Source: Bacteroidetes Order II. bacterium | Lineage (GTDB): Bacteria > Bacteroidota > Rhodothermia > Rhodothermales > UBA2364 | Direction: 5' to 3' | DNA length: 64,000 nt | Assembly: GCA_016788705.1 (NCBI GenBank) | Contig: JAEUSQ010000007.1 | Span: 124,001-188,000 of the forward strand | Part shown: in pieces, positions 10,463 to 64,000 of the stretch | Layout of the letters: every line of letters begins with the position of its first letter | Numbering within the stretch: the stretch's first letter is position 1 | The notes under the pieces: generated by a model | The model's database searches: none | Told to the model about the DNA's origin: nothing | The model's input: the letters and a program-made list of their open reading frames with translations, nothing else | Translations under genes and position numbers: made by a program

Positions 10463-10485
10463 AGAACTGTGGATCGAAAGTTGTG

Positions 10486-10519: not shown

Positions 10520-10535
10520 TAGTTCAGATCGTTTT

Positions 10536-11168: not shown

Positions 11169-11396
11169 TGGTTTTCTCGGAAAAAGTATAAACAAGGTAT
11201 AAAATAGGAAACAGGAGCTGTCATTATGTATTAACGAGATGATTCTTTGCTAAAACCTGCCTTAAAGAGGGTCCTCGCCTCATTACTTAACACTGTTCTT
11301 GCTCTTAACCGCATTTTGTTCGCCACAGAAGCCAATATTTCCGATTTTAATATGAATCAACGATTTTGTTGATTCCCAACCCCAACCTTTACCGCT

Positions 11397-16876: not shown

Positions 16877-16981
16877 ACAACCTTTTTTCAAAATTTGGCG
16901 ATCAAACCAAACCTTATTCAACATTGGCCTATGTTCTGCTTTATCTTATCCGTGAAACCTGCCTTTTTCGGTTCATAACAG

Positions 16982-47285: not shown

Positions 47286-48314
47286 ATGCCAGCCACCATA
47301 AAAGATGTAGCAAAAGAGTCAGGCGTCTCCGTCTCGACGGTCTCGCGTTGGCTGACAGGTGGCCCCGTGAGTACCCATAAACGAGAGAAAATTCAGCTTG
47401 CTGTACAGAAGCTAAACTTTGTCTCGAATGGGGCAGCCCGGAGTTTGGTGACCAAAAAAACCTATACTTTGGGAGTTTTATTGCCAGATATGTATGGTGG
47501 TTTCTATTCCGAAATCCTGCGTGGATTAGACCAAACCGCGCAAGAACGGGGGTATCACTTGTTGGTTTCGAGTTCTCACAATGAACAAAAGGAGATCGTG
47601 CGGGCCATTCAGGCCATGCAAGGCCGTGTAGATGGGTTGGTGGTGATGTCGCCCGACATAGATGCGGCTTCTTTACAGTCTAATTTACCGGCACGTCTCC
47701 CCATTGTATTGCTCAACTGCTATGTGGAAGGAGACGCCTATGATTCTATCAATGTAGATAATTATGGTGGGGCCTACTCCATTGTACGGCATCTGACTCG
47801 GCTGGGCCATCGTCGGATTGCCCTGATTACAGGTTCTTTGGTGAACCATGAAGTGTGTGAACGCTTGCGCGGGTACGAAGATGCTTTACGGGATGCGGGG
47901 ATAGCGGTGGTCTCGTCTATGCGCTTTGTGGGTGATTTTAACGAACCCAGTGGTCATCGTGGGGCACTGGCATTGCTACAATTTCCGGAACGTCCGACGG
48001 CGATTTTTGCCATGAACGATGGGATGGCCATTGGCGCTATGGCTGCACTGCGCACTCTTGGCCTACGAGTCCCGGAAGAAATTGCCATTGTAGGGTTCGA
48101 CGACATTCCGACTAGCCAATACTTAGAACCGCCGCTCACCTCGGTCCATGTGCCCATTTTTGAAATGGGGCAAAGGGCCATGGAGCGATTGCTGATGGCC
48201 ATTCAAGAGGCGAATGCGCATATCCGTCGTCAGGAAAAATTCCCAACCTCGCTGGTCATTCGGCGCTCTTGTGGCATAGGTCAGGAATTTCAGGAAGTAA
48301 CCACCGAAATGTAA
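47286..48314 (+). CDS. LacI-family transcriptional regulator
   Basis: A 342-residue LacI-type repressor: N-terminal helix-turn-helix with VAKESGVSVSTVSRWL, a hinge segment around AARSLVTKKTYTLGVLLPD and a periplasmic-binding-protein-like effector domain (LPDMYGGFYSEILRGLDQTA, then MNDGMAIGAMAALRTLGLRV and AIVGFDDIPTSQYLEPPLTS). It heads the co-directional glycan locus and three palindromic operator-like sites precede it. The effector is probably a sugar released from the target glycan, by family analogy. Confidence 0.93.
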   Translation: MPATIKDVAKESGVSVSTVSRWLTGGPVSTHKREKIQLAVQKLNFVSNGAARSLVTKKTYTLGVLLPDMYGGFYSEILRGLDQTAQERGYHLLVSSSHNEQKEIVRAIQAMQGRVDGLVVMSPDIDAASLQSNLPARLPIVLLNCYVEGDAYDSINVDNYGGAYSIVRHLTRLGHRRIALITGSLVNHEVCERLRGYEDALRDAGIAVVSSMRFVGDFNEPSGHRGALALLQFPERPTAIFAMNDGMAIGAMAALRTLGLRVPEEIAIVGFDDIPTSQYLEPPLTSVHVPIFEMGQRAMERLLMAIQEANAHIRRQEKFPTSLVIRRSCGIGQEFQEVTTEM

Positions 48315-48362: not shown

Positions 48363-50267
48363 ATGAAAACGTTTACGATCCGAATTTTATTAACCATGCT
48401 ACTCGTTGGCGGTTGGAGCACGAGTCAGGCGCAACGGGCAGATGCCTGGTGGGTGCGCTCGGCGGCGGGTGCTACCATCACCTTAGATGGCAATCTGAAT
48501 GAAGCGGCATGGGCAAAAGCCGAAGCCAAAACCATGGAATTTGGCAAAAGTGCTGGTTTACCTGGCTCTGGATGGCGGGATGAAGGCGGGCGTGGCGGCA
48601 ACCCGACAGACCCAATGAAAGCCACTGTCAAATTTTTGTTGGATGGCAATAAATTGTATATGGGCGTTGCCGTTGCCGATAGTTCGGTAGGCGGTTCTGG
48701 TGACTGGGCTACTTGGGATGCTTTCCTGATGGGCTTTAAGGACAAGACATCTGCCAACCGTCCTTTGCCAGCTGCCGAATATTTCTATACCTTCTGGTCT
48801 CCAGACAATCCCGATGCCACGAAGCCAGGTGCACAACCTCACTTCATTGGTAAATGGGGGGGCGATGGTTGGCCACCGTTTACTGCACCGCCAAGAGATG
48901 CCACACGGAAAGGCGCTTGGGATGGTGCGATCAAAGTGAATGGTGTGGTCAATGATGACAGTACGCCAGACAATGGGTATGTCGTAGAAATGATGTTCGA
49001 CTTGGGGGTGATGGGATATGACTTTACAAAGCCTGCGGGCGATGTGGGCCTTTTTGGCATGTCTATCTGGGATGCAGACTGGAATTGGCCGCGAAATGCT
49101 GCAAAATTTGCTTCGAACCGTACTTGGTGGCAAGATCCGTGGGGCAACGCGGATGCTTTTTCACAGATTCAGTTATGGGGTCGTCCAGATTGGACGATCA
49201 ACTCCACTGGAAGTGCGCCCACCGTGAATGTGGACGGTAAGATTCCAAATGCTACAGGAGAAACCATGCCGACAATTGATGGGGGATTGGCCGAAGCCGT
49301 TTGGGCCAAAGCCAAAGGTATGGATATCCGTTATGGTGATAAGGTGCTTCGCGATGGTTACCGGGGTGTTGCCCCTATGCTAAGCGGACAATTTCAGCCT
49401 GAGTTTAGCGGTGTCCGTGCGGACGTGCTTGATCCGGGAGATGCAACCGTTAAGTGGTTCTATTCTGGAACAAAATTGTATGTCTCGGTGGATGCTCGAG
49501 ACCAAGTCGTAACTGGCGATGACAACTACGACATGTGGGATGGCTTCCGCTTGATGTTATTAGACCGTGATCCGGCAGCACTAACGTCCGAAAATTTGGG
49601 CGAGGCCCGTCAGTTTGTTGTGCGCGTCGGTTCGGATGGTAAAATGGTGACCGATGGCTACCTGACCGATCTGATCAAAAATGGCAAAGCTGAAGCGGCG
49701 CTCAAGTTGAAAGGTTCTACTTCTGTGAACGATGCCAATGACATTGACCTTGGCTATACCGTTGAGATCATGATTGACCTTACCGCACTGGGTTATCCTA
49801 CTGCGGACAATACCTTGTTTGCAGGTATGTGTCTTTTTGACGGCGACCGTTTGGCAGATCCGGCCAAAAACTACAGTACGCGTACATGGTGGTTCAAAGA
49901 ACACCCGGGTGCTGCTTCATGGGCTTGGCTGGTGATGGATGATACCTTCAAAATTGGGGTGGCGAACGAAGATATATCCGAAGTACCAAACGGATTTAAA
50001 CTCGAAGGCAATTATCCGAACCCCTTTAATCCGTCCACAACCATTCGTTATGCACTGCCGCAAGCTGGAGAAGTGAATCTGGACGTATTTGATGTAACTG
50101 GTCGCCTTATTCGCACGGTTTATGTGGGTGCCCAAAGCACTGGATCGCAGGGCGCTACCTTCCAAGCGAATGGATTGGCATCGGGCGTTTACCTGTACCA
50201 AGTACGGGTAAAAACCCAAAAGGGCGTTTACACCAGTCCGGCTGGTAAAATGATCCTGATGAAATAA
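48363..50267 (+). CDS. Secreted double CBM9-like glycan-binding protein with T9SS signal
   Basis: A 634-residue exported protein with a signal peptide (LLTMLLVGGWSTSQAQ), two related beta-sandwich domains of the CBM9/DOMON-like type (about residues 30-265, starting ITLDGNLNEAAWAKAEA, and about 295-535, starting TIDGGLAEAVWAKAKG) and a C-terminal type IX sorting domain (GNYPNPFNPSTTIRYALP, ending GKMILMK). It probably sits at the cell surface and binds the target polysaccharide. It is the second gene of the locus, 48 bases after the LacI-type gene, and could share its transcript. No catalytic motif is seen. Confidence 0.8.
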   Translation: MKTFTIRILLTMLLVGGWSTSQAQRADAWWVRSAAGATITLDGNLNEAAWAKAEAKTMEFGKSAGLPGSGWRDEGGRGGNPTDPMKATVKFLLDGNKLYMGVAVADSSVGGSGDWATWDAFLMGFKDKTSANRPLPAAEYFYTFWSPDNPDATKPGAQPHFIGKWGGDGWPPFTAPPRDATRKGAWDGAIKVNGVVNDDSTPDNGYVVEMMFDLGVMGYDFTKPAGDVGLFGMSIWDADWNWPRNAAKFASNRTWWQDPWGNADAFSQIQLWGRPDWTINSTGSAPTVNVDGKIPNATGETMPTIDGGLAEAVWAKAKGMDIRYGDKVLRDGYRGVAPMLSGQFQPEFSGVRADVLDPGDATVKWFYSGTKLYVSVDARDQVVTGDDNYDMWDGFRLMLLDRDPAALTSENLGEARQFVVRVGSDGKMVTDGYLTDLIKNGKAEAALKLKGSTSVNDANDIDLGYTVEIMIDLTALGYPTADNTLFAGMCLFDGDRLADPAKNYSTRTWWFKEHPGAASWAWLVMDDTFKIGVANEDISEVPNGFKLEGNYPNPFNPSTTIRYALPQAGEVNLDVFDVTGRLIRTVYVGAQSTGSQGATFQANGLASGVYLYQVRVKTQKGVYTSPAGKMILMK

Positions 50268-50381: not shown

Positions 50382-53033
50382 ATGAAAGGTCTGCGTCTGA
50401 TCCTGTTGCTGTGCAGTACACTGTATGGCCAGATGGCTTACGCCCAAACCGGTAAACTTTCCGGAAAAGTAACCGATACAAATGGCATAACCCTTATTGG
50501 GGTGACGGTGGCATTGCCCGGAACCCAATTGGGAGCGGTTACGGATACCGAGGGCTATTTTGCAATTTTACGTATTCCGCCGGGTACTTATTCGGTACGG
50601 TATAGCTACATTGGCTACCAAACGCTGACCATTTCTGGGGTACGGGTTAATTCAAACCAAACCACTACCCAAAATGCCACCTTATCCGAGGAGACCTTAC
50701 AAGGTGGTGAAGTGACGGTGGTGGCCGAACGACCTATTGTGGATGTTTCACAAACCAGTTCTATGACCAGTTTGTCTAAGGAAGACATTGCGGTATTACC
50801 CGTGCAAAACATTGGCGAAATTGTAAACCTTCAAGCAGGTGTGGTAGATGGACACTTTCGGGGTGGAAGACAAGGTGAAGTACAATACCAAGTGGACGGG
50901 GTATCGGTTAATAATCCCTACAACAACAGTTCCTCTTTAGAATTAGACCGCTCGTTGTTGCAAGAAGTTCAGGTAATTTCCGGAACGTTTGATGCTGAAT
51001 ACGGACAGGCCATGTCTGGCGTGGTAAATGCGGTATTGCGTAGTGGAGACTTAGACCGCTTTGAAGTGAACCTCGAAGCCTTTGGCGGAAGTTATTATTC
51101 CACCACAAACAATAGCTATACCAATGCCAACCGTTTTCCGCATTTAGACAAATTAAGCCCCGTCAACCAACGCAATCTTCAAGCGAGTGTGAGTGGCCCC
51201 TTTATCAAGCAGACGACCTTTTTGGTCAGTGGGCAGCATTTAGCGAATGACGGATATTTGTTTGGTGAACGACGTTTTTTGCCTTCCGACCGTTCAGATT
51301 TGGAACAACGCATTTTTAATCCTACCGGAGATGGGGCTGTTGTTCCGATGAACTTTTCCTATGAATCCAATCTTCTGGCAAAGGTCTCGAACCGTTCCAT
51401 TAAAAACCTAAAGTTAGAATACCAAGCCATTACAAATTGGATTAAACGCAAATATTATAACGACACTTGGCGGCTAAATCCGGATGGCGTTAAATCACCC
51501 CGGCAGTTCTCGGTTGTACATGGATTGAACATTACCCATACATTGTCGGATAAACGGTTTTACGAATTAACCTTCCGTCAAAATAAATTTGATTACAAAG
51601 ATATGTTATTCGAGGACTTAACGAATCCCTTGTATTTAGAGTGGGGGCGTCCTCAGGGTGATAGCAATTATGAAGATGGAGCGGTGGTACAAGGGGCAGA
51701 CTTAGGCCGATTTATTCAGACAACGGATGCTTTGGTAGCAAAAGGTGCTTATACGGATCAGATTACCAAGGCGCATCTGCTCAAAATTGGCTTTGAAGTA
51801 ATGCGCTCAGATATTTCCTTTGGGGCGCCAGGGATCATTACCGAAACCAATGTGGACGGGGTACAGATTTTGCAGCCCCGTACCGATCTTCCGGAAGCCA
51901 AAACGACTGATTTTAGCCCGATTCAGGCCTCTCTCTTTGCACAAGATCGCTTAGAATGGGGAGATTTACGTATTCGGGGTGGTTTTCGATTGGAGTATTT
52001 TGATGCACGAACGACAGTACCAAGTGAACTACGAAACCCGGCCAATGCCATTAGTGGAGCACCTGCTTCGGTGCCAAAAGCCACCACAGTAAAACTGGCA
52101 CTCGCACCCCGATTGGGCATCTCGTTCCCCATTTTAGACAGGGCATCGGTCTTTTTCTCGTATGGCCATTTTTATCAAATGCCTGGTTTGGGACAATTAT
52201 TCCAGAATGCCGACTATTCCGTGTTGAAAGACCTTCAGGCAGGAGGGATTTCCTATGGGGTAATGGGAAATCCGGACTTGAGGCCTGAGTTTACAACGCA
52301 GTATGAGTTTGGATTTAAATCTGCTTTAAACCGCGATTTGGGATTGGACTTGAGTTTGTTTTATAAGGACATCCGCGATCTTTTGGGCGTAGAATTTGTA
52401 CAAACGTTTACCGCCGCAGAATACGCCCGCCTAACCAATGTGGACTTTGGGGGCGTGAGAGGGTTTACCCTTTCTTTAGACCAGCGAACGGCTGCAGGTT
52501 TGAATGCCTCGGTGGACTATACACTACAAGTCGCTGTCGGAAACAGCAGTGATCCCCGCGAGACGGCCAATCGTGCCGCTGCCGGAGAAGACCCGCGCCC
52601 ACGACAAGTGGCTTTTAACTGGGATCAGCGCCACACCCTCAATGGATCGCTTACATGGTATCGGGCCAATAATTTTAACTTGACGGCCATCTTGCGTTTT
52701 GGAAGTGGGCAGCCTTATACGCCGGAACTGGGTTCCACTTTTGGATCGGACTTGGAACCGAATTCGGGTCGCAAGGCCAATTTTTTCTTGTTGGATTTGC
52801 GTGCAGAAAAATATTTCAAACTGGGCAAATGGAATGCAACCGGATTTATCCGAGCATTTAACCTGACGGATGAACACGCGGTGAATGGTTTTGTATTTGC
52901 CAATACAGGCAGCCCCTATTATTCTTTAACGCCCGAAGCCAACCGAAGCCAACTCCGAAATCCGGGCCGTTTTGCACAACCAAGGCGCATCGAGGCTGGC
53001 ATAACCCTGCGTGGTATTTTTAAAAAACCTTGA
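50382..53033 (+). CDS. TonB-dependent outer-membrane receptor of the glycan locus
   Basis: Outer-membrane receptor, 883 residues. Signal peptide (LILLLCSTLYGQMAYAQ), a carboxypeptidase-regulatory-like domain at about 23-105 (LSGKVTDTNGITLIGVTVAL to SYIGYQTLTI), plug domain at about 115-235 (EVQYQVDGVSVNN, EYGQAMSGVVNAVLRSG) and a beta-barrel ending in IEAGITLRGIFKKP. It resembles SusC/Oar-type receptors, but no SusD partner gene is present. Position after the CBM9-like protein suggests uptake of glycan fragments. Confidence 0.92.
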   Translation: MKGLRLILLLCSTLYGQMAYAQTGKLSGKVTDTNGITLIGVTVALPGTQLGAVTDTEGYFAILRIPPGTYSVRYSYIGYQTLTISGVRVNSNQTTTQNATLSEETLQGGEVTVVAERPIVDVSQTSSMTSLSKEDIAVLPVQNIGEIVNLQAGVVDGHFRGGRQGEVQYQVDGVSVNNPYNNSSSLELDRSLLQEVQVISGTFDAEYGQAMSGVVNAVLRSGDLDRFEVNLEAFGGSYYSTTNNSYTNANRFPHLDKLSPVNQRNLQASVSGPFIKQTTFLVSGQHLANDGYLFGERRFLPSDRSDLEQRIFNPTGDGAVVPMNFSYESNLLAKVSNRSIKNLKLEYQAITNWIKRKYYNDTWRLNPDGVKSPRQFSVVHGLNITHTLSDKRFYELTFRQNKFDYKDMLFEDLTNPLYLEWGRPQGDSNYEDGAVVQGADLGRFIQTTDALVAKGAYTDQITKAHLLKIGFEVMRSDISFGAPGIITETNVDGVQILQPRTDLPEAKTTDFSPIQASLFAQDRLEWGDLRIRGGFRLEYFDARTTVPSELRNPANAISGAPASVPKATTVKLALAPRLGISFPILDRASVFFSYGHFYQMPGLGQLFQNADYSVLKDLQAGGISYGVMGNPDLRPEFTTQYEFGFKSALNRDLGLDLSLFYKDIRDLLGVEFVQTFTAAEYARLTNVDFGGVRGFTLSLDQRTAAGLNASVDYTLQVAVGNSSDPRETANRAAAGEDPRPRQVAFNWDQRHTLNGSLTWYRANNFNLTAILRFGSGQPYTPELGSTFGSDLEPNSGRKANFFLLDLRAEKYFKLGKWNATGFIRAFNLTDEHAVNGFVFANTGSPYYSLTPEANRSQLRNPGRFAQPRRIEAGITLRGIFKKP

Positions 53034-53073: not shown

Positions 53074-56000
53074 ATGATTATGTTCCGCAAACTTTTCTTA
53101 TTGGGTCTCCTTTTTGGATATGGGCATCTGGGCTTTGCGCAAGTAGTTCCACCCGAACTCAGGAGCCGAATAGATGCCGAACGGTCGGGAACCCATGATG
53201 CCAACCGTATTCGGACGCTTTTCTACAATTTTGGCATGGTGGGGGACTTTCAGGGAAACCCCGACCTCTCGGTTTTCCACTCTTCTGAAGTACCCAAAGG
53301 CACGGGTATCAACTACTCGGATGGCGTAACCCCTTTTGTATTGGCAAAAGTCAAACAACGAAGTGGTTCTAATGCATACATCATGGAAACCGGTTATCGT
53401 GAGCGGCAGGGGATTAGTCCTGTGACGGGCAAGGTCATGCGCTTTGAGCCGCGACCGGGTTATTTTCAGGAAGACCCCAGCGTCAATAAAGGGCGCTCGA
53501 TTGCCATGAGTAACGATCCGCGTACTTGGCCGGATAAGTGGGTGGACAAATTGAACGACGTGGATGATCCGGGCTGGGCAGGAGACTGGAATGGCTACTT
53601 TGGCAAAAGACCCAATGCAGACCAAGAAAGTTATTCGGTAATGGATGATAACTACTATGATGGCTGGGATTATTTTCCGGACACAAGAGACAATACTCGG
53701 CGTGGATTGGGGCTAAAGATTGCGGTTAGGGGCTTCCAGTGGGCCAATCCACAGGCCCAAAATGTCATTTTCTGGCAATATGACATTACAAATGAGTCCA
53801 CAACCGATTATGATGATAACATCATTTTTGGTTTATACATGGATTCGGGGGTGGGTGGCTCCCAACTTTCGTGCGACGGCATCTATGAGTCGGATGATGA
53901 CAATGCTTTTTATTCCACCGATTTGGGCGAAGACTTGGTTTATACGTGGGACAAGAACGGCACGGGGGTTAGCCTGAGCAGCAGTTGTGCCAAAACAGGA
54001 TATTTGGGCTATGCGTACTTGGAAACACCGGGCAATAAGTTTGATGGTATTGATAACGATGACGACGGTATTGTGGATGAGCAGCGGGATGGTGGGCCTG
54101 GGCAGAAAATTGAGGGGCAGTCTGCCATCTTGGCTTACCTACAATCAAAATATGACCTCACAAAATTTGAAAAGGAAATTGCACCGCTTACACAACGCGC
54201 AGCCTATCGTCTGGGGGTTTGGTGGACGGGTGACGAGGATTTGGACTGGGTTCCTGAGTTTCATGATACGGGTGCGGATGGCGTATTTGGCACCAATGAC
54301 CGTGGCGAGGGCGATGGGATACCCACAGATGGCGAGCCAAACTTTGATAAAACAGACGTGAATGAATCTGATCAAATCGGTCTAACTGGCTTTAAATTCA
54401 ATCGTATTAAAGCTGGCGCCGGAAATGGCAGTACCGAGACCGATAATATTGTTTTTTATGATGATGGGAAAGAATGGCCACGTCGTCTTTGGGAGCAATT
54501 CACTCATTCAGATCCCCAAAAACGTTTTGATCCACCACTTGCCGCCAATTACAATATTGGATTTGTGTTTGCATCCGGTACGTTCAAACTGAAGGCTGGT
54601 TCTACAGAACGCTTTAGTCTGGCTTTGGCCTATGGTGCCGATCTGGAAGAACTAAAAGACAATGTGAAGGTGGTATCACGCATTTATGATGCCAACTACC
54701 AGTTTGCCACTCCGCCTCCCAAGCCTGTCGTTCAGGCATTTGCCGAAGACCAAAAAGTCACACTTGTATGGGACAATGTTTCGGAGAAAACGCCGGATCC
54801 CGTCACCAACTTGTATGATTTTGAAGGCTACCGAGTGTATCGCTCTACCGACCCCAACTTTTTGGATGCGCAGGTCATTTCAACGGGACGTGGTACTGGT
54901 CCTTTTGGGAATGGGAAACCAATGGCACAATTTGATCTGAAAAATGGCGTTCGGGGCTTCTCGAACATCGCGGTTCAAGGGGTACAATATTGGTTGGGTG
55001 AAGATTCTGGTTTGATGCACAGTTTTGTAGATACGACGGTGGTGAATGGGCAAACCTATTACTATGCGGTCACTGCTTACGACAATGGATCGGAAGAATT
55101 CCAGTTCTTCCCGTCCGAGAATGCAATCTCTGTTTCTCGGACACCACGCGGAGGAACCATTTTGCCGTCTAACGTCGTGGAAGTCCGGCCCAATAAGGCC
55201 GTGCCGGGGTATGTACGGGCTGGGGTACAAGCTGGTTCTTTGGTACATACTGCCGGCGATGGAACTGGAGAAGTGAATATCCGGATACTGAATCCTAAAG
55301 CCGTAAAAGATGGACATAAATACCGAATCACCTTTACAGCGTCGCCAGATAGTGTCCGTGCAAAGAGTTATAGCATGACGGATGTGGATACCGGAGAATT
55401 GGTGTTTTCGGGGAGTGAAGACTTGGATGGGGGGATTTCGGGTGTAACGGGACATGGCCTTTTGCCCGTTGTCCGCACGCCCAAGATTTTATCTCCCGAT
55501 CTGGTTGCTTCTGGGTTTAAGACCGGGAGTACCACATCTGCCCAGATTACGGCGCGTTATGCAAGTTCGTTTAATATCAACCGTCGCCGACCTGGGTTTC
55601 CAGATGATTTAATTATTACTTTCTCGGATACGCCACAGGATACGTCTTTGGCAGCCATTGGGGCGCCTGCGCGGGCGGCTAAATTCACCATAAAAACCAG
55701 TCAAGGTCAAAAACTAAAGTTCCGGTTTCGGGATGTCAACAACTCTGGTACCTTAGATGAAGCCACCGAATTCATAGAAGTGCTTACCTACCTGCCCGAA
55801 GCCCCCCGTACGCCTTTGGCTACGTGGGACATTCGGCTTGCAGCGGGTTCACCTACTTCCAAGCCGCCAACGAGCGGTGATGTTTATCAGTTGGTATTGG
55901 CAAAACCCTTTCAAAAAGGGGATGTATTTGAATTTAAGGTGGATGGCGAACGCATTAATGCCACGGATGCGAAATCTCAGTTCGACGAACAAAAACCTTA

Positions 56001-56298
56001 TGTTGTACCGAATCCTTATGTGGCGTCGGCCAGCTTCGAGCCAGAACGGTTTGCGGTTTCTGGTCGTGGGGTTCGCCGGATGGAGTTTCGGAACATTCCC
56101 CAAAATGCGACCATACGAATTTATACCGTAAAAGGGGAATTGGTTAAACTCTTGGTGCAAGATGGCCTAACGACTGGAATGGTTCCGTGGGATCTACGCT
56201 CCAAAGACAACTTGGAAGTTGCGCCCGGACTTTATTTGTTCCATGTGGATGCTGGAGACTTAGGCACGTTTGTGGATAAATTTGCGATTATTAAATAA
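53074..56298 (+). CDS. Large secreted protein of unknown function with FN3-like domain
   Basis: A 1074-residue exported protein. After the signal (LFLLGLLFGYGHLGFAQ) there is a N-terminal region of unrecognised fold with many Asp/Gly/Tyr residues (residues 30-330, including DNYYDGWDYFPDTRDN), a stretch of calcium-binding-like Asp repeats (GIDNDDDGIVDEQRDGG, about residue 322, and GADGVFGTNDRGEGDGIPTD, about 410), a fibronectin III-like domain (about 545-650, VTLVWDNVSEKTPDP) and a C-terminal Ig-like segment ending GTFVDKFAIIK, similar to FlgD-type/T9SS-like sorting modules. The start could be 53074 or 53080. Proteins of this layout often accompany TonB receptor and PorV genes, but the function is unknown. 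Confidence 0.75.
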   Translation: MIMFRKLFLLGLLFGYGHLGFAQVVPPELRSRIDAERSGTHDANRIRTLFYNFGMVGDFQGNPDLSVFHSSEVPKGTGINYSDGVTPFVLAKVKQRSGSNAYIMETGYRERQGISPVTGKVMRFEPRPGYFQEDPSVNKGRSIAMSNDPRTWPDKWVDKLNDVDDPGWAGDWNGYFGKRPNADQESYSVMDDNYYDGWDYFPDTRDNTRRGLGLKIAVRGFQWANPQAQNVIFWQYDITNESTTDYDDNIIFGLYMDSGVGGSQLSCDGIYESDDDNAFYSTDLGEDLVYTWDKNGTGVSLSSSCAKTGYLGYAYLETPGNKFDGIDNDDDGIVDEQRDGGPGQKIEGQSAILAYLQSKYDLTKFEKEIAPLTQRAAYRLGVWWTGDEDLDWVPEFHDTGADGVFGTNDRGEGDGIPTDGEPNFDKTDVNESDQIGLTGFKFNRIKAGAGNGSTETDNIVFYDDGKEWPRRLWEQFTHSDPQKRFDPPLAANYNIGFVFASGTFKLKAGSTERFSLALAYGADLEELKDNVKVVSRIYDANYQFATPPPKPVVQAFAEDQKVTLVWDNVSEKTPDPVTNLYDFEGYRVYRSTDPNFLDAQVISTGRGTGPFGNGKPMAQFDLKNGVRGFSNIAVQGVQYWLGEDSGLMHSFVDTTVVNGQTYYYAVTAYDNGSEEFQFFPSENAISVSRTPRGGTILPSNVVEVRPNKAVPGYVRAGVQAGSLVHTAGDGTGEVNIRILNPKAVKDGHKYRITFTASPDSVRAKSYSMTDVDTGELVFSGSEDLDGGISGVTGHGLLPVVRTPKILSPDLVASGFKTGSTTSAQITARYASSFNINRRRPGFPDDLIITFSDTPQDTSLAAIGAPARAAKFTIKTSQGQKLKFRFRDVNNSGTLDEATEFIEVLTYLPEAPRTPLATWDIRLAAGSPTSKPPTSGDVYQLVLAKPFQKGDVFEFKVDGERINATDAKSQFDEQKPYVVPNPYVASASFEPERFAVSGRGVRRMEFRNIPQNATIRIYTVKGELVKLLVQDGLTTGMVPWDLRSKDNLEVAPGLYLFHVDAGDLGTFVDKFAIIK

Positions 56299-56359: not shown

Positions 56360-57361
56360 ATGAAGGTACTTGTTTTTCTGGTTTCCCTTTTCCTGAACCT
56401 GACTTTGGCCTATGCGCAAAGCAAAACAGGAACCACCATCGGACAGTTTTTGCTAATTGAACCCAGTGCCCGTGCTTTGGGCATGGGCAATGCTTCGGTA
56501 ACGTTATACGGAGATCCTTCTGCGGGCTATTTTAACCCCGCTGCCCCTGCTTGGGAGCCTCGGACGGCTGTACAGTTCTCTCATGGTGCTTGGCTGGTGG
56601 GAATTTCTCATCAGTATGCCACGACTGATATCCGAATGGGAAAAGCTGATGCACTCTCCATTCACGTCACTTCCTTAAACTCTGGCGATATTGCCGTTCG
56701 TACCGTAGAGCAACCTTTGGGTACAGGAGAGCAATATCAAGTGCGAGATTTGGCGATGAGTGTGGGGTACAGCCGTAAACTCAGCGATCGGTTTTCGGCA
56801 GGCGTCAATCTTAAATACGTAACAGAGCGCATTTGGAATTCTTCGCTTCAAGCCGGAGCTTTGGATTTTGGGGTGATGTATCAATTGCCTTTTGGCGCAC
56901 AATTGGGGGCAAGTTTGGCTAATTTTGGCACAAAAGGGAAGTTTGATGGTAAAGACCTTCGGGTTCGCTTTGACGCCAATCCGGATAAATATGGGGATAA
57001 TTCCAGTTTACCCGCAGCCTTGGTCACCGATGCGCATCAATTGCCCGTTCTTTTTAGGGTTGGGATGGATTATCCTGTTCAATTAGGCCGTAAAGCAAAA
57101 GCCGTATTCGCCATAAATGCCTTCCATCCAAGCGACAATACGGAAAGTGTGAGTTTGGGAACGGAAGTTACCCTTTTCGACACATTTTCCCTTCGTGGTG
57201 GCTATCAGCACCTGTTTCAACAAGACCACGAAACGGGTCTCACATTGGGCGCTGGGATAAATTATGAAATAGAACAATACCGCTTCCGGTTCGATTATGG
57301 CTGGGCGGACTTTGGCCGCTTGGGAAGTAGTCAGCGTTTTGGGTTTGCCTTCGACTTTTAA
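56360..57361 (+). CDS. PorV/PorQ-family outer-membrane protein
   Basis: A 333-residue outer-membrane barrel of the PorV/PorQ (DUF3308) group, linked to type IX secretion. Signal (LVFLVSLFLNLTLAYAQ) and the family's N-terminal GQFLLIEPSARALGMGNASV and GYFNPAAPAW motifs are present; the C-terminus SQRFGFAFDF ends in Phe. PorV moves cargo with C-terminal sorting domains to the attachment complex. It lies between the large secreted protein and the glucanase genes, so it may serve locus-specific cargo. Whether it is a full PorV or a specialised relative cannot be told here. Confidence 0.85.
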   Translation: MKVLVFLVSLFLNLTLAYAQSKTGTTIGQFLLIEPSARALGMGNASVTLYGDPSAGYFNPAAPAWEPRTAVQFSHGAWLVGISHQYATTDIRMGKADALSIHVTSLNSGDIAVRTVEQPLGTGEQYQVRDLAMSVGYSRKLSDRFSAGVNLKYVTERIWNSSLQAGALDFGVMYQLPFGAQLGASLANFGTKGKFDGKDLRVRFDANPDKYGDNSSLPAALVTDAHQLPVLFRVGMDYPVQLGRKAKAVFAINAFHPSDNTESVSLGTEVTLFDTFSLRGGYQHLFQQDHETGLTLGAGINYEIEQYRFRFDYGWADFGRLGSSQRFGFAFDF

Positions 57362-57403
57362 GCACCGTATTAAGGAAAGAAGGGGGAACCCTTGGACAAA
57401 AGC

Positions 57404-59275
57404 ATGAAAAGAGTTGAATTTAAAGTGGTATTCACCTTGCTGGTTTGCATGGTTGCCGTAGGAACGTGTTCCGCTGTCTTTGCACAGACCGGGCCAGCGC
57501 CTCCTGTAAACTTTTCCGTAAGAACAGGGGATAAAACCGCCATTATTCGATGGGGTGCTGCAGATCGGACGACATTGGGCTATTACGTCTATTGGTCAAC
57601 CAGTGTTGCCGGGCCGTTTACCTCCAGAACATCGGTGATGCAAACACAGCCCTATTGGGTGGATACCAGTTTGCCGAATGATAAAACCTATTATTTTGCT
57701 ATTTCTGCAGTAAACACCAGCTTTATAGAAGGGGAAAAGTCGCAACCGATTGCTGTAACCCCAAAAGAATTATCGGATGAAGCCTTTTTGGATTTGATGC
57801 AACAAACGGCATTTGATTTTTTTTGGTACGAGGCCAATCCGGAAAAAGGGTTGATTAGAGACCGGAGCCAGCGGGGTTCTCATGCCAGTACGGCCAGTGT
57901 AGGTTTTGGACTTCCGGCCATTGCCGTCGGGATTGAACGTGGGTGGATCACCCGCGAGGAAGGCCGCAAACGTGTTTTAAATACCCTGCGGTTCTTTGCG
58001 GATGTCCCGACGGATCAGCCTTCGGATGGAACCGGATACAAGGGGTTTTATTATCATTTCCTGAATTTTACGGGCGGGTATCGGGAATGGAGTAGCGAAC
58101 TTTCTACCATTGATACAGCCTTGTTGCTGGCAGGTGTTTTGTTTTCTAAAGAATATTTTTCTGGAACCGACGCCGAAGAAGCCGAAATCCGGTCATTGGC
58201 AACGGAAATAAACAACCGTGCAGACTGGAACTGGGCCTCGCCCCGTTCTCCACGGGTGTCTCATGGGTGGAAGCCGGAAACGGGCCTGCTGCCTTATGAC
58301 TGGGCCGGATACAGTGAGGCATCCATCTTATATATCATTGGCCTTGGTTCGCCCACGCACCCTTTGCCCGCATCGTCTTGGAATGCATGGACGTCTTCCT
58401 ATAGCTGGCAAACGCATTACGGACAGTCTTTTGTTATCTTTCCACCTTTGTTTGGACATCAATATTCTCATGTTTTTATTGACTTTAGGGGGATAAAAGA
58501 CAGTTACATGGCCGCACGGGGTTCCGATTATTTCGAGAATTCGCGCCGTGCTACCCTTGCGCAACAGGCTTATTGTATAGCCAACCCCAAAAAATTTACG
58601 GATTATGGGGAAAACCTATGGGGGATTACCGCTTCGGATGTACCAGGTGGGTATAAAGCGCGAGGTGCTCCGCCAGACTGGAGCGATGATGGAACACTAA
58701 ATCCTACCGCACCAGGTGGATCTTTTCCTTTTACACCCACCGAGTCGCTGGCCGCTTTACGCGAGATGTATAACCGTTATCGTCCCAATTTGTGGGGCGC
58801 TTATGGGCTTAAAGACGCCTTTAACCCTTCCAAAAATTGGTTTGCAAGCGATTTTATAGGGATTGACCAAGGCCCGATTGTTTTGATGATCGAGAACCAT
58901 CGCACAGGGCTGATTTGGAAACACATGATGAAGAGCGAGGTCATTCAGCGTGGGCTCCGGCGGGCGGGCTTTAAAGGCCCTGGGGTGGTCAATGATTCTG
59001 AACTTCCTCCAGCAGAGGTTGTGCAGGCCAATGGGTATCCCAATCCCTTTATCAGCAACGTACAACTTCAAGTCGTTATGGATCAAAGTGGAAAAGCGAC
59101 CTTAGAGGTTTTTGATGTGCAAGGGCGGCGAGTACATCGGGAGGAAAAATACGTAGAACGTGGGGAACAGAAATGGTTGTTGAATGGGGCTGGGTGGCCA
59201 AGTGGGGTATATTTGGTGCGGATTCGGCATAATGGAAAAGAAACGTTTTCGCGGGTAGTCCGCCAAAGTGATTGA
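57404..59275 (+). CDS. Secreted GH144-type (PF10091) glucanase with FN3 and T9SS domains
   Basis: A 623-residue exported hydrolase. Signal peptide, an FN3-like domain at about 30-120 (PPVNFSVRTGDKTAIIRWGA), the catalytic glycoamylase-like domain at about 130-530 (LIRDRSQRGSHASTASVGFG, SELSTIDTALLLAGVLFS, FSPLFGHQY-like FPPLFGHQYSHVFIDF, IDQGPIVLMIENHRTGLIW) and a C-terminal type IX sorting domain (GYPNPFISNVQLQV). The PF10091 family includes GH144 endo-beta-1,2-glucanases, so beta-1,2-glucan is the best substrate guess. A TTG at 57392 is an alternative start, better spaced from a purine-rich GGAAAGAAGGGGG stretch; the ATG at 57404 is used here. The adjacent gene is a paralog. Confidence 0.83.
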   Translation: MKRVEFKVVFTLLVCMVAVGTCSAVFAQTGPAPPVNFSVRTGDKTAIIRWGAADRTTLGYYVYWSTSVAGPFTSRTSVMQTQPYWVDTSLPNDKTYYFAISAVNTSFIEGEKSQPIAVTPKELSDEAFLDLMQQTAFDFFWYEANPEKGLIRDRSQRGSHASTASVGFGLPAIAVGIERGWITREEGRKRVLNTLRFFADVPTDQPSDGTGYKGFYYHFLNFTGGYREWSSELSTIDTALLLAGVLFSKEYFSGTDAEEAEIRSLATEINNRADWNWASPRSPRVSHGWKPETGLLPYDWAGYSEASILYIIGLGSPTHPLPASSWNAWTSSYSWQTHYGQSFVIFPPLFGHQYSHVFIDFRGIKDSYMAARGSDYFENSRRATLAQQAYCIANPKKFTDYGENLWGITASDVPGGYKARGAPPDWSDDGTLNPTAPGGSFPFTPTESLAALREMYNRYRPNLWGAYGLKDAFNPSKNWFASDFIGIDQGPIVLMIENHRTGLIWKHMMKSEVIQRGLRRAGFKGPGVVNDSELPPAEVVQANGYPNPFISNVQLQVVMDQSGKATLEVFDVQGRRVHREEKYVERGEQKWLLNGAGWPSGVYLVRIRHNGKETFSRVVRQSD

Positions 59276-59292: not shown

Positions 59293-61380
59293 ATGATGCT
59301 ACGCAACGGTTTGTTGTTGCTTTTGGTGGTATTTGCAGGTTGTTCGCCGAAACCGCGTCCAACCCTCGCGATGCATTCCTCTGGCGATGAAGCGTTTTTA
59401 GACGAGGTGCAACACCGCACCTTTAACTGGTTCTGGGAAACCACCAATCCGCAAAACGGCCTGGTGCCAGATCGTTGGCCCACCGAGTCTTTTTCGAGTG
59501 TTGCAGCCGTCGGTTTTGGTTTGACGGCCTATCCCATTGGAGCAGAACGTGGCTGGATATCCCGAAAACAAGCCATAGATCGGACGCTCGCAACACTCAA
59601 GTTTTTCTGGAAAGCGCCACAAAGTCCGGCAGGCTTAAAACAAACCGGATATAAGGGCTTTTATTATCATTTTTTAGACATGAAAACCGGAGAACGCTTC
59701 CGGAACGTAGAATTGTCTAGCATAGATACGGCCTGGCTGATGTCGGGCGTGTTGTTTGCACAGAGCTATTTCGATCAAAACAATCCACAGGAAAAACAAA
59801 TTCGGGCATACGCCGATTCGCTCTACCGCCGTGTGGAGTGGGACTGGATGCATGTTCGCGGGGGCCTAATGGCAATGGGGTGGTATCCGGAGTCTGGTTT
59901 GCATACACACGACTACCGAGGCTATGATGAAGCCATGATGCCTTATATCTTGGGACTCGGTTCCCCGACGTTTCCTTTTAGGGATGATGCGTGGGCGTCT
60001 TATACGGCTTCTTACCAATGGCAGTCCTTTTATGGGCAGGAGCACGTTAATTTTTCTCCGCTATTTGGTCACCAATACACACAAATGTACCTACCGCTGA
60101 AAGGGATTCAGGATGCGTTTATGCGTACCAAAGGTATAGATTATTTTGAAAATTCGCGTCGGGCCACCTTAAGCCAGCACGCTTATGCGGTTGCCAACCC
60201 AAATGGCTGGAAAGATTATAGCGCAGCAATTTGGGGGCTTACCGCATGTGATGGTCCTTTAGACATTGAACGGGAGTTTAATGGAAAAATGCGTCGTTTT
60301 CAAACTTATACGGCACGGGGAGCCAGTGCAGGATACGTGTTAGATGATGGAACCTTGTCTCCTACGGCGGTTGGTGGTTCAGTGCCTTTTGCGCCAGAAA
60401 TTACAATTTCTACCTTGAGGGCCATGGCCTCGCGATATGGCGAACCGCTTTATAATAAATATGGTTTTTTGGATGCCTTTAATCCTTCATTTACCTTTAC
60501 GGATGTAAAGCCACAGCATGGCCGGGTTGTTCCAGGGAAAGGATGGTTTGATACAGATTATCTGGGTATAGACCAAGGCCCAATTTTGGTGATGATAGAA
60601 AATTATCGCACCGGCTTGGTCTGGAAAACCATGCAGAAAAACCCCTACATCCGCAAAGGATTGGAACGGGCAGGCTTTACCGGTGGTTGGTTGGATAACG
60701 TACCAAGCACACACGCTACACCAAGCCAATGGATACCCGAACGCATGACGAATGTACAAACTTCACCCAAATACAAACGTTTGGTGGTCATGGGTTCTTC
60801 TACTGCCGAGGGCGTAGGGCCAAAGATTTGGGAAAATACTTGGGTCAACCGATTACGTCACTTGGTTGAGCCAACAGGTGAAATCCATGTTTTCAATATT
60901 GCCCGTAGTGCATATACAACTTTTCACCTGCTTCCAACCGAGCACCCCAGGGTACAAAACAGGCCAGAACCAGATGTAGAGCGGAATATCAGCAAAGCCC
61001 TTAGCCTAAATCCGGATGGCATCATCATCAACTTGCCCTCAAACGACACCACGGCTGGTTATGGTTTGGAGGAACAAATGCTGAATTTTGAAGCCATCTT
61101 GGCACCTGCAAAGGAAAAGGGTATTCGGGTTTGGATGACCACCACACAACCACGTAACCTGACAGAGGAAAAACGGGCAGAACTGATGCAGGTTCGAGAC
61201 CAGTTGAAACTTCGTTATGGCGATTGGGTGATTGATTTTTGGCGTGACGTGGCCTTGGAAGACGGAAAAATTAACCCTAAATATGACGCTGGTGATCAGA
61301 TTCATCTGAATGATGTTGCCCATGAGTTGTTTTTTAATCGCGTGGAAGCAGCATTACGGCGTTGGTTGGAACAAAAATAA
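59293..61380 (+). CDS. Lipoprotein fusing GH144-type glucanase to SGNH hydrolase
   Basis: A 695-residue lipoprotein (lipobox FAGC, Cys17) with two enzymatic parts. The glucanase-like domain (about 30-470) parallels the neighbour's: GFGLTAYPIGAERGWISRKQ, SSIDTAWLMSGVLFAQ, FSPLFGHQYTQMYL, IDQGPILVMIENYRTGLVWK. From about residue 494 an SGNH/GDSL-type esterase domain begins: block I VVMGSSTAEG (Ser502/503 nucleophile), block III Asn584 (NLPSNDT) and block V Asp668-x-x-His671 (AGDQIHLND). This suggests one protein that cuts the glucan and removes acyl groups such as succinyl or acetyl. The acyl substrate is inferred. It lies 17 bases downstream of the first glucanase gene. Confidence 0.83.
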   Translation: MMLRNGLLLLLVVFAGCSPKPRPTLAMHSSGDEAFLDEVQHRTFNWFWETTNPQNGLVPDRWPTESFSSVAAVGFGLTAYPIGAERGWISRKQAIDRTLATLKFFWKAPQSPAGLKQTGYKGFYYHFLDMKTGERFRNVELSSIDTAWLMSGVLFAQSYFDQNNPQEKQIRAYADSLYRRVEWDWMHVRGGLMAMGWYPESGLHTHDYRGYDEAMMPYILGLGSPTFPFRDDAWASYTASYQWQSFYGQEHVNFSPLFGHQYTQMYLPLKGIQDAFMRTKGIDYFENSRRATLSQHAYAVANPNGWKDYSAAIWGLTACDGPLDIEREFNGKMRRFQTYTARGASAGYVLDDGTLSPTAVGGSVPFAPEITISTLRAMASRYGEPLYNKYGFLDAFNPSFTFTDVKPQHGRVVPGKGWFDTDYLGIDQGPILVMIENYRTGLVWKTMQKNPYIRKGLERAGFTGGWLDNVPSTHATPSQWIPERMTNVQTSPKYKRLVVMGSSTAEGVGPKIWENTWVNRLRHLVEPTGEIHVFNIARSAYTTFHLLPTEHPRVQNRPEPDVERNISKALSLNPDGIIINLPSNDTTAGYGLEEQMLNFEAILAPAKEKGIRVWMTTTQPRNLTEEKRAELMQVRDQLKLRYGDWVIDFWRDVALEDGKINPKYDAGDQIHLNDVAHELFFNRVEAALRRWLEQK

Positions 61381-61411: not shown

Positions 61412-62680
61412 ATGTACCGTTTTATGTTCCTGTTTTTGGTCGTGGTGACTGGATGTACCAACCAAACGGATTCCCGAAAGGAAATCCGCATTTGGGCAAT
61501 GGGCAAAGAGGGGGAGGTTTTAGGAACATTGGTACCAGCGTTTGAGCGATTAAACCCTGATATAAAAGTGCGGGTGCAGGCCCTGCCTTGGACGGCAGCC
61601 CATGAAAAACTTTTAACCGGATTTGCGGGAGAATCGTTACCAGATTTGTGCCAGTTGGGGAATACTTGGATGCCTGAATTTACCGCACTGAATGCTTTGG
61701 AGGAGCTAACCCCTTGGATCGCCCAAAGCAAGGTTGTGCAGGCGAAAGATTATTTTACAGGTATTTGGGCCTCTAATGTTTTTGATAATCAAACATATGG
61801 TATTCCTTGGTATGTGGATACACGTCTGCTTTTTTACCGAAAAGACCTCCTCGAAAAAGCGGGATACACATCGCCACCCCAAACTTGGCGGGAATGGGAA
61901 ATAGCCATGCAGCAGATCAAAAAACAAGTGGGACCAGACAAATATGCGGTATTGCTGCCTTTAAACGAGTTTGAACCCCCCATTATTTTTGCCCTTCAAC
62001 AACCTGAGGAAATGCTTCGAGAAAATGGGACGCGGGGGAATTTCCAAAGTAGCGGTTTCAAAAAAGCATATAGGTACTACCTTGATTTATTCCGCAACCA
62101 ACTATCACCCAGTGTAGGCAATCAGGAAATATCCAATGTCTGGCATGAATTTGGGCGCGGGTATTTTTCTTTTTATATCACCGGACCTTGGAACGTGAGC
62201 GAATTTAAAGCCCGGCTCCCCCAATCCCTACAAACGGCTTGGGCAACCGCCCCCATGCCTGCACCAGAGGCTGGGCAGGCCCCTTATTCGATGGCTGGAG
62301 GTGCCAGTTTGGTTATTTTCCGGCAATCAAAACGGAAGGCCGAAGCGTGGGCCTTCTTGGAATACCTCTCGCGTCCAGAAGTGCAAATCCGGTTTAATGA
62401 ATTGACGGGTGACCTTCCACCACGTCTATCCGCATGGCAAAATCCCAAATTAGCCGCCGATCCATACATGCGGGCGTTTCGGCAACAATTGGAATTCACA
62501 CGCCCAACCCCGAAAGTGCCCGAATGGGAGCGTATTGCCACCGAATTGCGCCTGACTACCGAGGTGGTGCTGAGTGGCAAAAAAAGTATGGAAGTGGCCT
62601 TAAAAGATTTAGATGCCACGACGGACCGCATCCTTGAAAAGCGCCGCTGGATGTTGGCCCAAAACCGAGCAATACCATGA
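61412..62680 (+). CDS. Sugar ABC transporter substrate-binding lipoprotein
   Basis: A 422-residue family 1 extracellular solute-binding protein that would deliver oligosaccharides to the ABC importer. The N-terminus MYRFMFLFLVVVTGCTN has a lipobox VTGC. Family segments are IRIWAMGKEGEVLGTLVPAF, QLGNTWMPEFTAL, YGIPWYVDTRLLFYRKDLLE and a PYSMAGGASLVIFRQSKRK lobe. The start at 61412 begins the signal; a longer frame overlaps the upstream gene. It overlaps the permease gene by four bases (ATGA), so they are translationally coupled. Confidence 0.92.
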   Translation: MYRFMFLFLVVVTGCTNQTDSRKEIRIWAMGKEGEVLGTLVPAFERLNPDIKVRVQALPWTAAHEKLLTGFAGESLPDLCQLGNTWMPEFTALNALEELTPWIAQSKVVQAKDYFTGIWASNVFDNQTYGIPWYVDTRLLFYRKDLLEKAGYTSPPQTWREWEIAMQQIKKQVGPDKYAVLLPLNEFEPPIIFALQQPEEMLRENGTRGNFQSSGFKKAYRYYLDLFRNQLSPSVGNQEISNVWHEFGRGYFSFYITGPWNVSEFKARLPQSLQTAWATAPMPAPEAGQAPYSMAGGASLVIFRQSKRKAEAWAFLEYLSRPEVQIRFNELTGDLPPRLSAWQNPKLAADPYMRAFRQQLEFTRPTPKVPEWERIATELRLTTEVVLSGKKSMEVALKDLDATTDRILEKRRWMLAQNRAIP

Positions 62681-63573
62681 ATGCTCCTACACTCCCTATT
62701 GGAACGGTACGTGCTGCATGGTTTTTTGTAGCGCCCGCATTGCTCCTGATTGTGGTCTTTTTCTTTGTGCCCGTTTTGGCTGCTTTTTTTCTGAGTTTCA
62801 CGGATTTTGACATTTATGCCTTGGCAAACCCGGATCATTTACGGGTAGTGGGTCTTAAAAACTATCAGGAACTGCTTGCTTCCGAAGATTTTTGGAAAGC
62901 ACTTGGAAATACCTTCTATTTTGTCTTGGTCGGCGGCCCGCTATCGGTGGGCATATCATTGGGTACTGCTTTGTTGTTGCAATCCAAGGTAGTACGGTTC
63001 AAATCATTTTTTAGGACTATTTTTTTCGCTCCTGTGGTCACCACCATTGTGGCCGTAGCGGTTGTTTGGCGTTATCTCTATCACACCAAATATGGTTTTC
63101 TAAACTACATTCTACATTTTTTGGGAATAGATCCGGTGGATTGGTTGGGAGATCCGATCTGGGCCATGCCTGCAATCATCCTGATGGCGGTCTGGAAAGG
63201 CTTTGGTTACAACATGGTTATTTTTATTGCCGGACTACAAAACATACCAGATGAATTGTATGAGTCCGCTCAGATTGATGGGGCGGGGGCTTGGCAGCAG
63301 TTCTGGCATGTCACGTTGCCGATGCTTGCTCCTACCTTTTTGTTTGTGGGCCTGATGACGATGATCGGTTATTTTCAGTTGTTTGCCGAACCTTATGTGA
63401 TGACACTAGGTGGACCACTCCAAAGCACCGTTAGCATCGTGTATCTGATGTATGAACAAGGTTTTAAGTGGTGGAATCTGGGCTATGCGGCTGCCGTTGC
63501 ATTTGTCTTGTTTATCATTATGCTGGTTGCAACCCTCATCCAATTCCGGCTTCAGAAAACCGATGCCGCCTAA
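62677..63573 (+). CDS. Sugar ABC transporter permease, MalF-type
   Basis: A 298-residue inner-membrane permease of the MalF class, the first of a pair. About six membrane segments are visible (for example AAWFFVAPALLLIVVFFFVP), and the cytoplasmic EAA loop YESAQIDGAGAWQQFWHVTL lies in the second half with the conserved G. It couples to the substrate-binding gene by a four-base ATGA overlap and is followed 22 bases later by the second permease. Import of an oligosaccharide made by the glucanases is inferred from context. Confidence 0.95.
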   Translation: MNAPTLPIGTVRAAWFFVAPALLLIVVFFFVPVLAAFFLSFTDFDIYALANPDHLRVVGLKNYQELLASEDFWKALGNTFYFVLVGGPLSVGISLGTALLLQSKVVRFKSFFRTIFFAPVVTTIVAVAVVWRYLYHTKYGFLNYILHFLGIDPVDWLGDPIWAMPAIILMAVWKGFGYNMVIFIAGLQNIPDELYESAQIDGAGAWQQFWHVTLPMLAPTFLFVGLMTMIGYFQLFAEPYVMTLGGPLQSTVSIVYLMYEQGFKWWNLGYAAAVAFVLFIIMLVATLIQFRLQKTDAA

Positions 63574-63595
63574 GTTTATTAATGAGTAGATACCC

Positions 63596-64000
63596 ATGAA
63601 ACATCGGCTTAATTTTTGGTTGGTAAATGGCAGTTTATGGCTTTTTGCGCTGGTAACCGCCTTTCCATTGGTTTGGATGGTCTCTGTTTCGTTTATGCAA
63701 ACGGGCGAGGCTGGGGCATACCCACCCCCACTCTTCCCCCAATCCCCCACTCTGATGCAGTATGAAACCCTCTTCGAGCGGATGGAAATGGGGCGATATT
63801 TTCTGAATAGTTTCCTTTTGGCGACCAGTATCACGCTACTTTCGTTGCTTTTGAATGCCATGGCTGGCTATGCCTTTGCTAAATTGTCGTTCTATGGGAA
63901 AGAGCGCCTATTCAAAACCCTTTTAGCAGCACTTGTCATTCCGGCACAAGTGGCCATGCTACCCCTCTTTCTCATGATGAAATACCTCGGTTTGGTAAAT
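63596..64000 (+). CDS. Sugar ABC transporter permease, MalG-type, cut by window end
   Basis: The second permease of the importer, open to the right edge (135 codons seen). It starts MKHRLNFWLVNGSLWLFALV and shows the MalG-type N-terminal membrane segment, a periplasmic loop (GAYPPPLFPQSPTLMQYETL) and the segments NSFLLATSITLLSLLLNAMA and LVIPAQVAMLPLFLMM. The EAA loop and C-terminus lie outside the window. A matching ATPase is not visible. Confidence 0.9.
   Translation, partial: MKHRLNFWLVNGSLWLFALVTAFPLVWMVSVSFMQTGEAGAYPPPLFPQSPTLMQYETLFERMEMGRYFLNSFLLATSITLLSLLLNAMAGYAFAKLSFYGKERLFKTLLAALVIPAQVAMLPLFLMMKYLGLVN

What the first reader, a model, noticed from the sequence alone, without database searches (positions are those of the whole stretch)
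59293..61380. Glucanase-SGNH esterase fusion in one lipoprotein
A GH144-type (PF10091) glucanase domain is joined to an SGNH hydrolase domain with block I Ser (GSSTAEG), block III Asn584 and block V Asp668/His671 all visible. A two-activity enzyme for acylated beta-1,2-glucans (for example succinylated or acetylated osmoregulated or cyclic glucans) would explain the fusion. Such an architecture appears uncommon to me, but I could not search.
Basis: partly seen in the sequence, partly recalled or inferred. Interest (0 to 1): 0.75.

Follow-up and report, generated by a model that had tools for sequence, protein, structure and literature searches.

The report
Beta-1,2-glucanase fused to an acyl esterase
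A bacterium of the Rhodothermales order carries, in a gene cluster for eating beta-1,2-glucan, one membrane-anchored protein that joins a glucan-cutting enzyme to a probable acyl-removing esterase, and related esterases were joined to or placed beside such glucanases several separate times, which suggests that acyl-decorated beta-1,2-glucans are a real food source.

Summary
The 695-aa ORF at 59293-61380 (+) has a signal peptide with lipobox Cys17, a PF10091/GH144 domain (E=2.6e-76) and a PF13472 SGNH domain (E=1.2e-14). Ser503, Asn584, Asp668 and His671 are all present. AlphaFold models the SGNH part at pLDDT 97, with a best structural match Z of 21.6. The gene sits in a near-complete beta-1,2-glucan utilisation cluster.

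The fusion is rare and conserved. It is present in 9 of 245 genomes of the class, all in the window's order. Four of 134 GH144-bearing Bacteroidota genomes sampled have it, as do 0 of 96 GH144-bearing plasmids.

The new result is recurrence. The same SGNH subfamily is fused to the other GH144 paralogue in reversed order (KSB1), is fused to a GH3 beside GH144 in another genome, and lies unfused in GH144 clusters of Neolewinella/Lewinella and another Bacteroidota lineage.

The best explanation is an anchored two-step enzyme that removes O-acyl groups and endo-cleaves beta-1,2-glucan before import. The acyl group and the esterase activity are inferred.

It is a new variant of a known kind (a GH-carbohydrate esterase fusion) and a candidate new CE family.

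The parts
59293..61380 (+). Whole gene: lipoprotein GH144-SGNH fusion, 695 aa
   Evidence: conserved in other genomes
59293..59343 (+). Signal peptide with lipobox FAG-C17; no acidic lipoprotein-export signal just after the Cys, so probably periplasm-facing (inference)
   Evidence: sequence; Cys17 invariant in 8 fused relatives
59380..60702 (+). GH144 (PF10091) beta-1,2-glucanase domain, about residues 30-470; general acid E213, F258, Y339, acidic base candidate D145
   Evidence: residues mapped on XcSGL/CpSGL of PMC12102758
60703..60774 (+). Linker of about 24 aa, fast evolving (50-67% identity inside the genus)
60775..61377 (+). SGNH hydrolase domain, residues 495-695: S503, (A540), N584, D668, H671
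57392..59275 (+). Neighbouring GH144 with Por_Secre_tail (type IX secretion): the extracellular partner glucanase
   Evidence: paralogue clade
61412..62680 (+). Lipoprotein solute-binding protein of an ABC importer, similar to the sophorooligosaccharide-binding protein Lin1841
62677..63573 (+). ABC permease 1 (BPD_transp_1)
63596..64000 (+). ABC permease 2, runs off the window; the cluster goes on outside it with a 1013-aa GDE_C-like protein, a GH94 phosphorylase, a GH1 beta-glucosidase and an aldo/keto reductase (L003)
56360..57361 (+). PorV-like outer-membrane protein
53074..56298 (+). Large exported protein of unknown family, conserved in the related clusters
50382..53033 (+). TonB-dependent receptor (no SusD beside it)
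48363..50267 (+). CBM9-like protein with type IX secretion tail
47286..48314 (+). LacI-type regulator, probably of the cluster

Best explanation
This is a lipid-anchored, probably periplasmic bifunctional enzyme of a beta-1,2-glucan scavenging pathway. A type IX-secreted GH144 outside the cell trims beta-1,2-glucans, and the pieces enter through the TonB receptor. In the periplasm the SGNH domain removes O-acyl esters (acetyl or succinyl) that would block the active sites downstream. The joined GH144 domain endo-cleaves the chain by an inverting mechanism into sophorooligosaccharides. The SBP/ABC importer then takes these in for the GH94 phosphorylase and the GH1 beta-glucosidase. Shown here: the fusion, its conservation, the catalytic residues, the SGNH fold, the cluster, and the separate re-association of the SGNH subfamily with GH144. 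Inferred: the esterase activity, the acyl-glucan substrate, the periplasmic location and the order of steps.
For: GH144 part: best solved match is XcSGL/XCC2207 (8xul, E=1.5e-169), a proven beta-1,2-glucanase (PMC12102758). E213, F258 and Y339 match its clan-defining E239, F286 and Y367. SGNH part: PF13472, pLDDT 97, fold matches include the carbohydrate esterase PbeAcXE and the mannan esterase CEX. Cluster: the SBP resembles Lin1841; [quoted passage not shown] GH1 and a T9SS GH144 are present. This is close to the Ignavibacterium album beta-1,2-glucan cluster (PMC8861115). Association: all 9 whole SGNH-subfamily genes in 114 genomes of the order are fused to GH144; a tenth match is a remnant. 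The reversed fusion SGNH-GH144-T9SS in KSB1 L035 is on the other GH144 paralogue; SGNH-GH3 lies beside GH144 in L038; the subfamily lies unfused in GH144 clusters in L071, L079, L084 and L085. Outside Rhodothermia, 11 GH144 genes lie in 6 of 75 SGNH loci (1.16 Mb), against roughly 0.2-0.5 expected. In 394 Bacteroidota genomes, 18 of 19 with the SGNH subfamily also have GH144, against 134 overall (Fisher 2e-8, not corrected for kinship). Natural cyclic beta-1,2-glucans carry succinyl and/or acetyl groups (PMC11842490, PMC9558356).
Against: Ala540 replaces the near-invariant block II Gly in this genus, and the genus sits on a long branch of the SGNH tree (0.83). Most SGNH-subfamily members found lie away from GH144 (69 of 75 non-Rhodothermia loci), so the subfamily as a whole is not specific to beta-1,2-glucan. 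Several sister species keep the GH144 without SGNH, so the domain is dispensable to the pathway. No solved or assayed enzyme is closer than about 25% identity.
Confidence: 0.66

Rival explanations
1. The SGNH domain is an esterase, but for another ester met in the same habitat: an acylated hemicellulose, lipid or acyl-sophoroside ester that travels with the glucan. The fusion gives anchoring and co-regulation only.
For: The subfamily is broad, and most members are in other contexts (T9SS proteins with LamG, CBM30, NHL or Ig modules). The nearest solved folds act on acetyl xylan, acetyl mannan or polyvinyl alcohol.
Against: The fusion or neighbour partner is repeatedly a beta-1,2-glucan enzyme, and all other identified parts of the window's cluster serve beta-1,2-glucan.
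Confidence: 0.2
2. In the window's genus the SGNH domain has lost or greatly lowered catalysis (Ala at the oxyanion position) and serves as a binding or structural module; the active form is in the other genera.
For: A540 is fixed in three species, with a long stem branch. SGNH dN/dS is about twice that of the GH part.
Against: Ser, Asn, Asp and His are all kept under purifying selection (dN/dS 0.085). The oxyanion hole uses the backbone NH of this residue (PMC9105624), which Ala still offers.
Confidence: 0.1
3. The SGNH domain transfers acyl groups onto glucan fragments (acyltransferase) instead of removing them.
For: SGNH domains are known as acyltransferase partners, for example in AT3-SGNH proteins and PatB (PMC9558356).
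Against: There is no AT3 or MBOAT gene in the cluster and no acyl-donor partner, and the cluster is catabolic. The organism has no OpgG and no second GH94/CGS-type gene, so it probably makes no beta-1,2-glucan of its own.
Confidence: 0.04

Closest known systems
XcSGL (XCC2207, PDB 8xul), GH144 endo-beta-1,2-glucanase of Xanthomonas campestris
   Same: GH144 domain aligned over residues 36-468; same catalytic Glu, Phe, Tyr and acidic base candidate
   Different: XcSGL has a short disordered C-terminal region and no SGNH domain (PMC12102758)
Ignavibacterium album beta-1,2-glucan cluster (IALB_1177-1187)
   Same: Two GH144 (one proposed to act outside, others in the periplasm), a CGS-like GH94 and a Lin1841-like SBP (PMC8861115)
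   Different: The terms esterase and lipase do not occur in that paper; there is a GH35 transglycosylase in place of the GH1
SGR_2422, putative acetyl-esterase in the Streptomyces griseus beta-1,2-glucan cluster
   Same: An unclassified esterase gene sitting in a beta-1,2-glucan cluster (PMC12369401)
   Different: A separate protein without signal peptide, untested, beside GH193 instead of GH144; homology to the present SGNH domain not tested here
SGNH carbohydrate esterases such as PbeAcXE (7tog) and the mannan esterase CEX (6hfz)
   Same: SGNH fold with Ser-Asp-His triad, acting on O-acetyl groups of polysaccharides
   Different: About 17-19% identity; CBM-like N-terminal domain instead of a glycoside hydrolase in PbeAcXE; xylan or mannan substrates; GNSI motif in PbeAcXE against GSST here

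Membership tests
GH144 (beta-1,2-glucanase) | Sequence membership of the family (PF10091 and similarity to XcSGL/CpSGL) | tested here: met
   PF10091 2.6e-76; 8xul E=1.5e-169, CpSGL 5gzh E=2.7e-41; groups with XcSGL in the tree
GH144 (beta-1,2-glucanase) | General acid Glu plus the clan's Phe and Tyr (XcSGL E239, F286, Y367) | tested here: met
   E213, F258, Y339 by the alignment; invariant; residues from PMC12102758
GH144 (beta-1,2-glucanase) | Acidic residue at the CpSGL E142 position | tested here: met
   D145 by alignment, invariant
GH144 (beta-1,2-glucanase) | (alpha/alpha)6 barrel | tested here: inconclusive
   The full-length model from 8 rows is poor (pLDDT 49); fold inferred from similarity to 8xul
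GH144 (beta-1,2-glucanase) | Endo-hydrolysis of beta-1,2-glucan with inversion | not testable with these tools
   needs an assay
SGNH hydrolase superfamily | SGNH fold | tested here: met
   pLDDT 97; Z up to 21.6
SGNH hydrolase superfamily | Block I Ser, block III Asn, block V Asp and His | tested here: met
   S503, N584, D668, H671 in 77 of 77
SGNH hydrolase superfamily | Block II Gly (oxyanion hole) | tested here: not met
   Ala540 in the window genus; Gly in 74 of 77 relatives, including the fused proteins of other genera. Superfamily membership rests on the fold and the other residues.
Known carbohydrate esterase (CE) family | Close sequence similarity to a characterised CE | tested here: inconclusive
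   Only distant matches among solved structures (best profile E 3e-6); the CAZy families themselves could not be searched
Bacterial lipoprotein | Signal peptide with lipobox Cys | tested here: met
   LLVVFAG-C17 by eye, Cys invariant in relatives; no signal-peptide predictor was run

The most novel reading that the evidence does not exclude
The SGNH clades tied to GH144 are an unrecognised carbohydrate esterase group for acylated beta-1,2-glucans (succinylated or acetylated cyclic and periplasmic glucans). It was captured by beta-1,2-glucan clusters several times, in either domain order and on either GH144 paralogue. With the FGly-type sulfatases of sister clusters, it would point to decorated beta-1,2-glucans as an environmental carbon source.
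Probability: 0.45. Interest if true: 0.68.

Novelty: new variant of a known kind. Interest (0 to 1): 0.5.

Why it matters
Beta-1,2-glucans of Brucella and many other Proteobacteria carry succinyl or acetyl esters. I found no report, in the open-access papers searched, of an enzyme that removes them. This protein and its reversed-order counterpart in KSB1 are direct, testable candidates for such an enzyme. If active, they would found a CE group, supply a tool to map substituents on these glucans (whose modified positions on linear periplasmic glucans are said to be unknown, PMC11842490), and show that decorated glucans are recycled by other bacteria.

Tried and rejected
- Chance or annotation artefact: rejected. 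The same fusion occurs in other species and genera and is under purifying selection.

- GH192-194 membership: considered because the nearest structure comes from the paper that founded those families. XcSGL is itself GH144 there, and the only hit outside GH144 in the same list (8xuk, PgSGL3, Group 3) is weak.

- Full-length AlphaFold model from 8 rows: pLDDT 49, not used. No domain-domain geometry can be stated.

- Test whether the Rhodothermota fusions and the KSB1/Bin_13 SGNHs are one clade: not rejected on the SGNH domain alone (AU p=0.22). Independence of the KSB1 fusion rests instead on the reversed order and on the other GH144 paralogue carrying it.

- Defence-system role: no PADLOC match.

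- Own synthesis or turnover of glucan: no MdoG/OpgG domain and only one GH94 gene in the genome.

- Literature search for a GH144-SGNH fusion or a beta-1,2-glucan deacylase: none found in the open-access library. Subscription papers are not covered.

Full report
What is there. The ORF at 59293-61380 (+) is real and complete: a signal peptide ending in lipobox FAG-C17, a GH144 domain (about 30-470), a 24-aa linker, and an SGNH domain (495-695). Pfam gives PF10091 at 2.6e-76 and PF13472 at 1.2e-14. It starts 17 bases after the stop of another GH144 gene (57392-59275), which has a type IX secretion tail. A gene for a lipoprotein solute-binding protein follows about 30 bases after it.

GH144 half. 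The best solved relative is XcSGL (8xul), a GH144 enzyme active only on beta-1,2-glucan among the polysaccharides tested (PMC12102758). Reading the alignment, E213, F258 and Y339 correspond to XcSGL E239, F286 and Y367, the residues proposed to define the clan. D145 corresponds to the acidic base candidate (CpSGL E142). The 8xul chain has Gln at the E213 position, which I take to be the inactive mutant used for the complex.

SGNH half. With 77 relatives AlphaFold gives pLDDT 97. The structural matches are SGNH esterases: Z 21.6 to a GDSL protein of Desulfitobacterium, about 21 to a polyvinyl alcohol esterase and to the acetyl xylan esterase PbeAcXE. S503, N584, D668 and H671 are invariant in all 77. 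The block II residue that completes the oxyanion hole through its backbone NH is Ala540 here and in the two other species of the genus, and Gly in 74 of 77 relatives. Ala keeps the backbone NH, so activity is plausible but should be measured.

Cluster. From 47286 to beyond the window there are: a LacI regulator, a CBM9-T9SS protein, a TonB receptor, a large exported protein of unknown family, a PorV-like protein, GH144-T9SS, GH144-SGNH, an SBP and two permeases. Outside the window (L003) follow a 1013-aa GDE_C-like protein with an F5/8-type C module, a 1161-aa GH94, a GH1 and an aldo/keto reductase. The SBP matches Lin1841, the sophorooligosaccharide binder of Listeria innocua (role in PMC12369401). 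[quoted passage not shown] The set resembles the I. album cluster, for which an outside GH144, TonB import, periplasmic GH144, ABC import and GH94 were proposed (PMC8861115). The genome has no MdoG domain and no second GH94, so this looks like scavenging, not own-glucan turnover.

How common. In the order, 10 of 114 genomes match the SGNH subfamily: nine are whole GH144 fusions, and the tenth (G003) is a remnant. Across 245 genomes of the class there is one more gene at the stricter cut-off, a CBM30-SGNH-T9SS protein without GH144 (G371). In a sample of 394 Bacteroidota genomes 134 have GH144, and only G000, G001, G002 and G008 have the fusion. Among 96 GH144-bearing plasmid records none covers 80% of the query.

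Recurrence. The 80 best relatives of the SGNH domain in named genomes were fetched and scanned for GH144. Five more records of the GH144-SGNH order turned up: L036, L047 and L078 from named Rhodothermota, L034 close to the window's genus, and L077, which groups with Rhodothermota in sequence. Some of them are the same genomes as in the unnamed set. In addition: (i) KSB1 L035 has SGNH-GH144-T9SS, the reverse order, next to an unfused GH144 lipoprotein. In the GH144 tree the fused one groups away from the lipoprotein clade, and its unfused neighbour falls inside that clade, so this is a separate fusion on the other paralogue. (ii) L038 has SGNH-GH3 beside a GH144, an SBP, permeases and a GH1. 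(iii) Three Neolewinella/Lewinella loci and (iv) Bacteroidota locus L084 (three GH144 genes) carry it unfused. Leaving out the Rhodothermia fusions, 11 GH144 genes lie in 6 of 75 loci over 1.16 Mb. A background of 0.145-0.43 GH144 per Mb, my rough estimate, predicts 0.2-0.5. Genome co-occurrence is also high: 18 of 19, not corrected for kinship. Still, 69 of 75 loci show no GH144 nearby, so only some clades are tied to it.

History. The C-terminal fusions form one group in the SGNH tree (94/96), so one gain is likely in Rhodothermales. Unfused orthologues fall inside the fused set in a quick GH144 tree (support 81-84), which hints at later losses; this is weak.

Why an esterase. [quoted passage not shown] The Brucella glucan is succinylated (reference cited in PMC9558356). 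An unclassified acetyl-esterase-like gene was noted in the S. griseus beta-1,2-glucan cluster (PMC12369401). Related Rhodothermales clusters also carry sulfatases with the CSPSR motif and an FGE gene. Some have SGNH and sulfatase, some sulfatase only, the window's cluster SGNH only. This fits a changing set of decoration-removing modules. It is inference, not proof.

Verdict. It is a new variant of a known kind (GH plus carbohydrate esterase), with a recurrent-capture pattern that raises its interest.

Noticed in passing
L126:16924-18393 and 15942-16901; L127:14237-15850 and 10321-12069; L129:11457-14222; L130:8679-10340; L035:4258-5679: FGly-type sulfatases (CSPSR motif) in the beta-1,2-glucan clusters of related Rhodothermales and KSB1, with FGE genes in at least two; suggests sulfated beta-1,2-glucans. 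The window genome has one sulfatase, about 88 kb away from the fusion gene.
   Followed up: partly
L003:5515-8556 (just outside the window): 1013-aa secreted protein with an F5/8-type C module and a weak GDE_C match; no solved relative for the catalytic part. Homologues are in the GH144 clusters of L034, L035 and L038: a candidate unknown glycosidase of this pathway.
   Followed up: partly
window residue A540 (60910-60912): Block II Gly replaced by Ala (NIARSAYTT) in all three species of the genus, with a long branch in the SGNH tree.
   Followed up: partly
L125:2700-3400 (-), genome G003: A collapsed copy of the fusion: signal peptide and first part of GH144 joined out of frame to the end of the SGNH domain, about 540 codons missing; a pseudogene or an assembly collapse.
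   Followed up: partly
L086:4152-8426: One 1425-aa protein with three SGNH domains of this subfamily in tandem (Marinilabiliaceae).
   Followed up: no
window 53074-56298: 1074-aa exported protein with no Pfam match, conserved between the TonB receptor and PorV-like genes of related clusters; perhaps the SusD-like partner of this group.
   Followed up: no
window 61412-64000 and L003: ABC importer with SBP and two permeases but no ATPase gene seen in the cluster.
   Followed up: no
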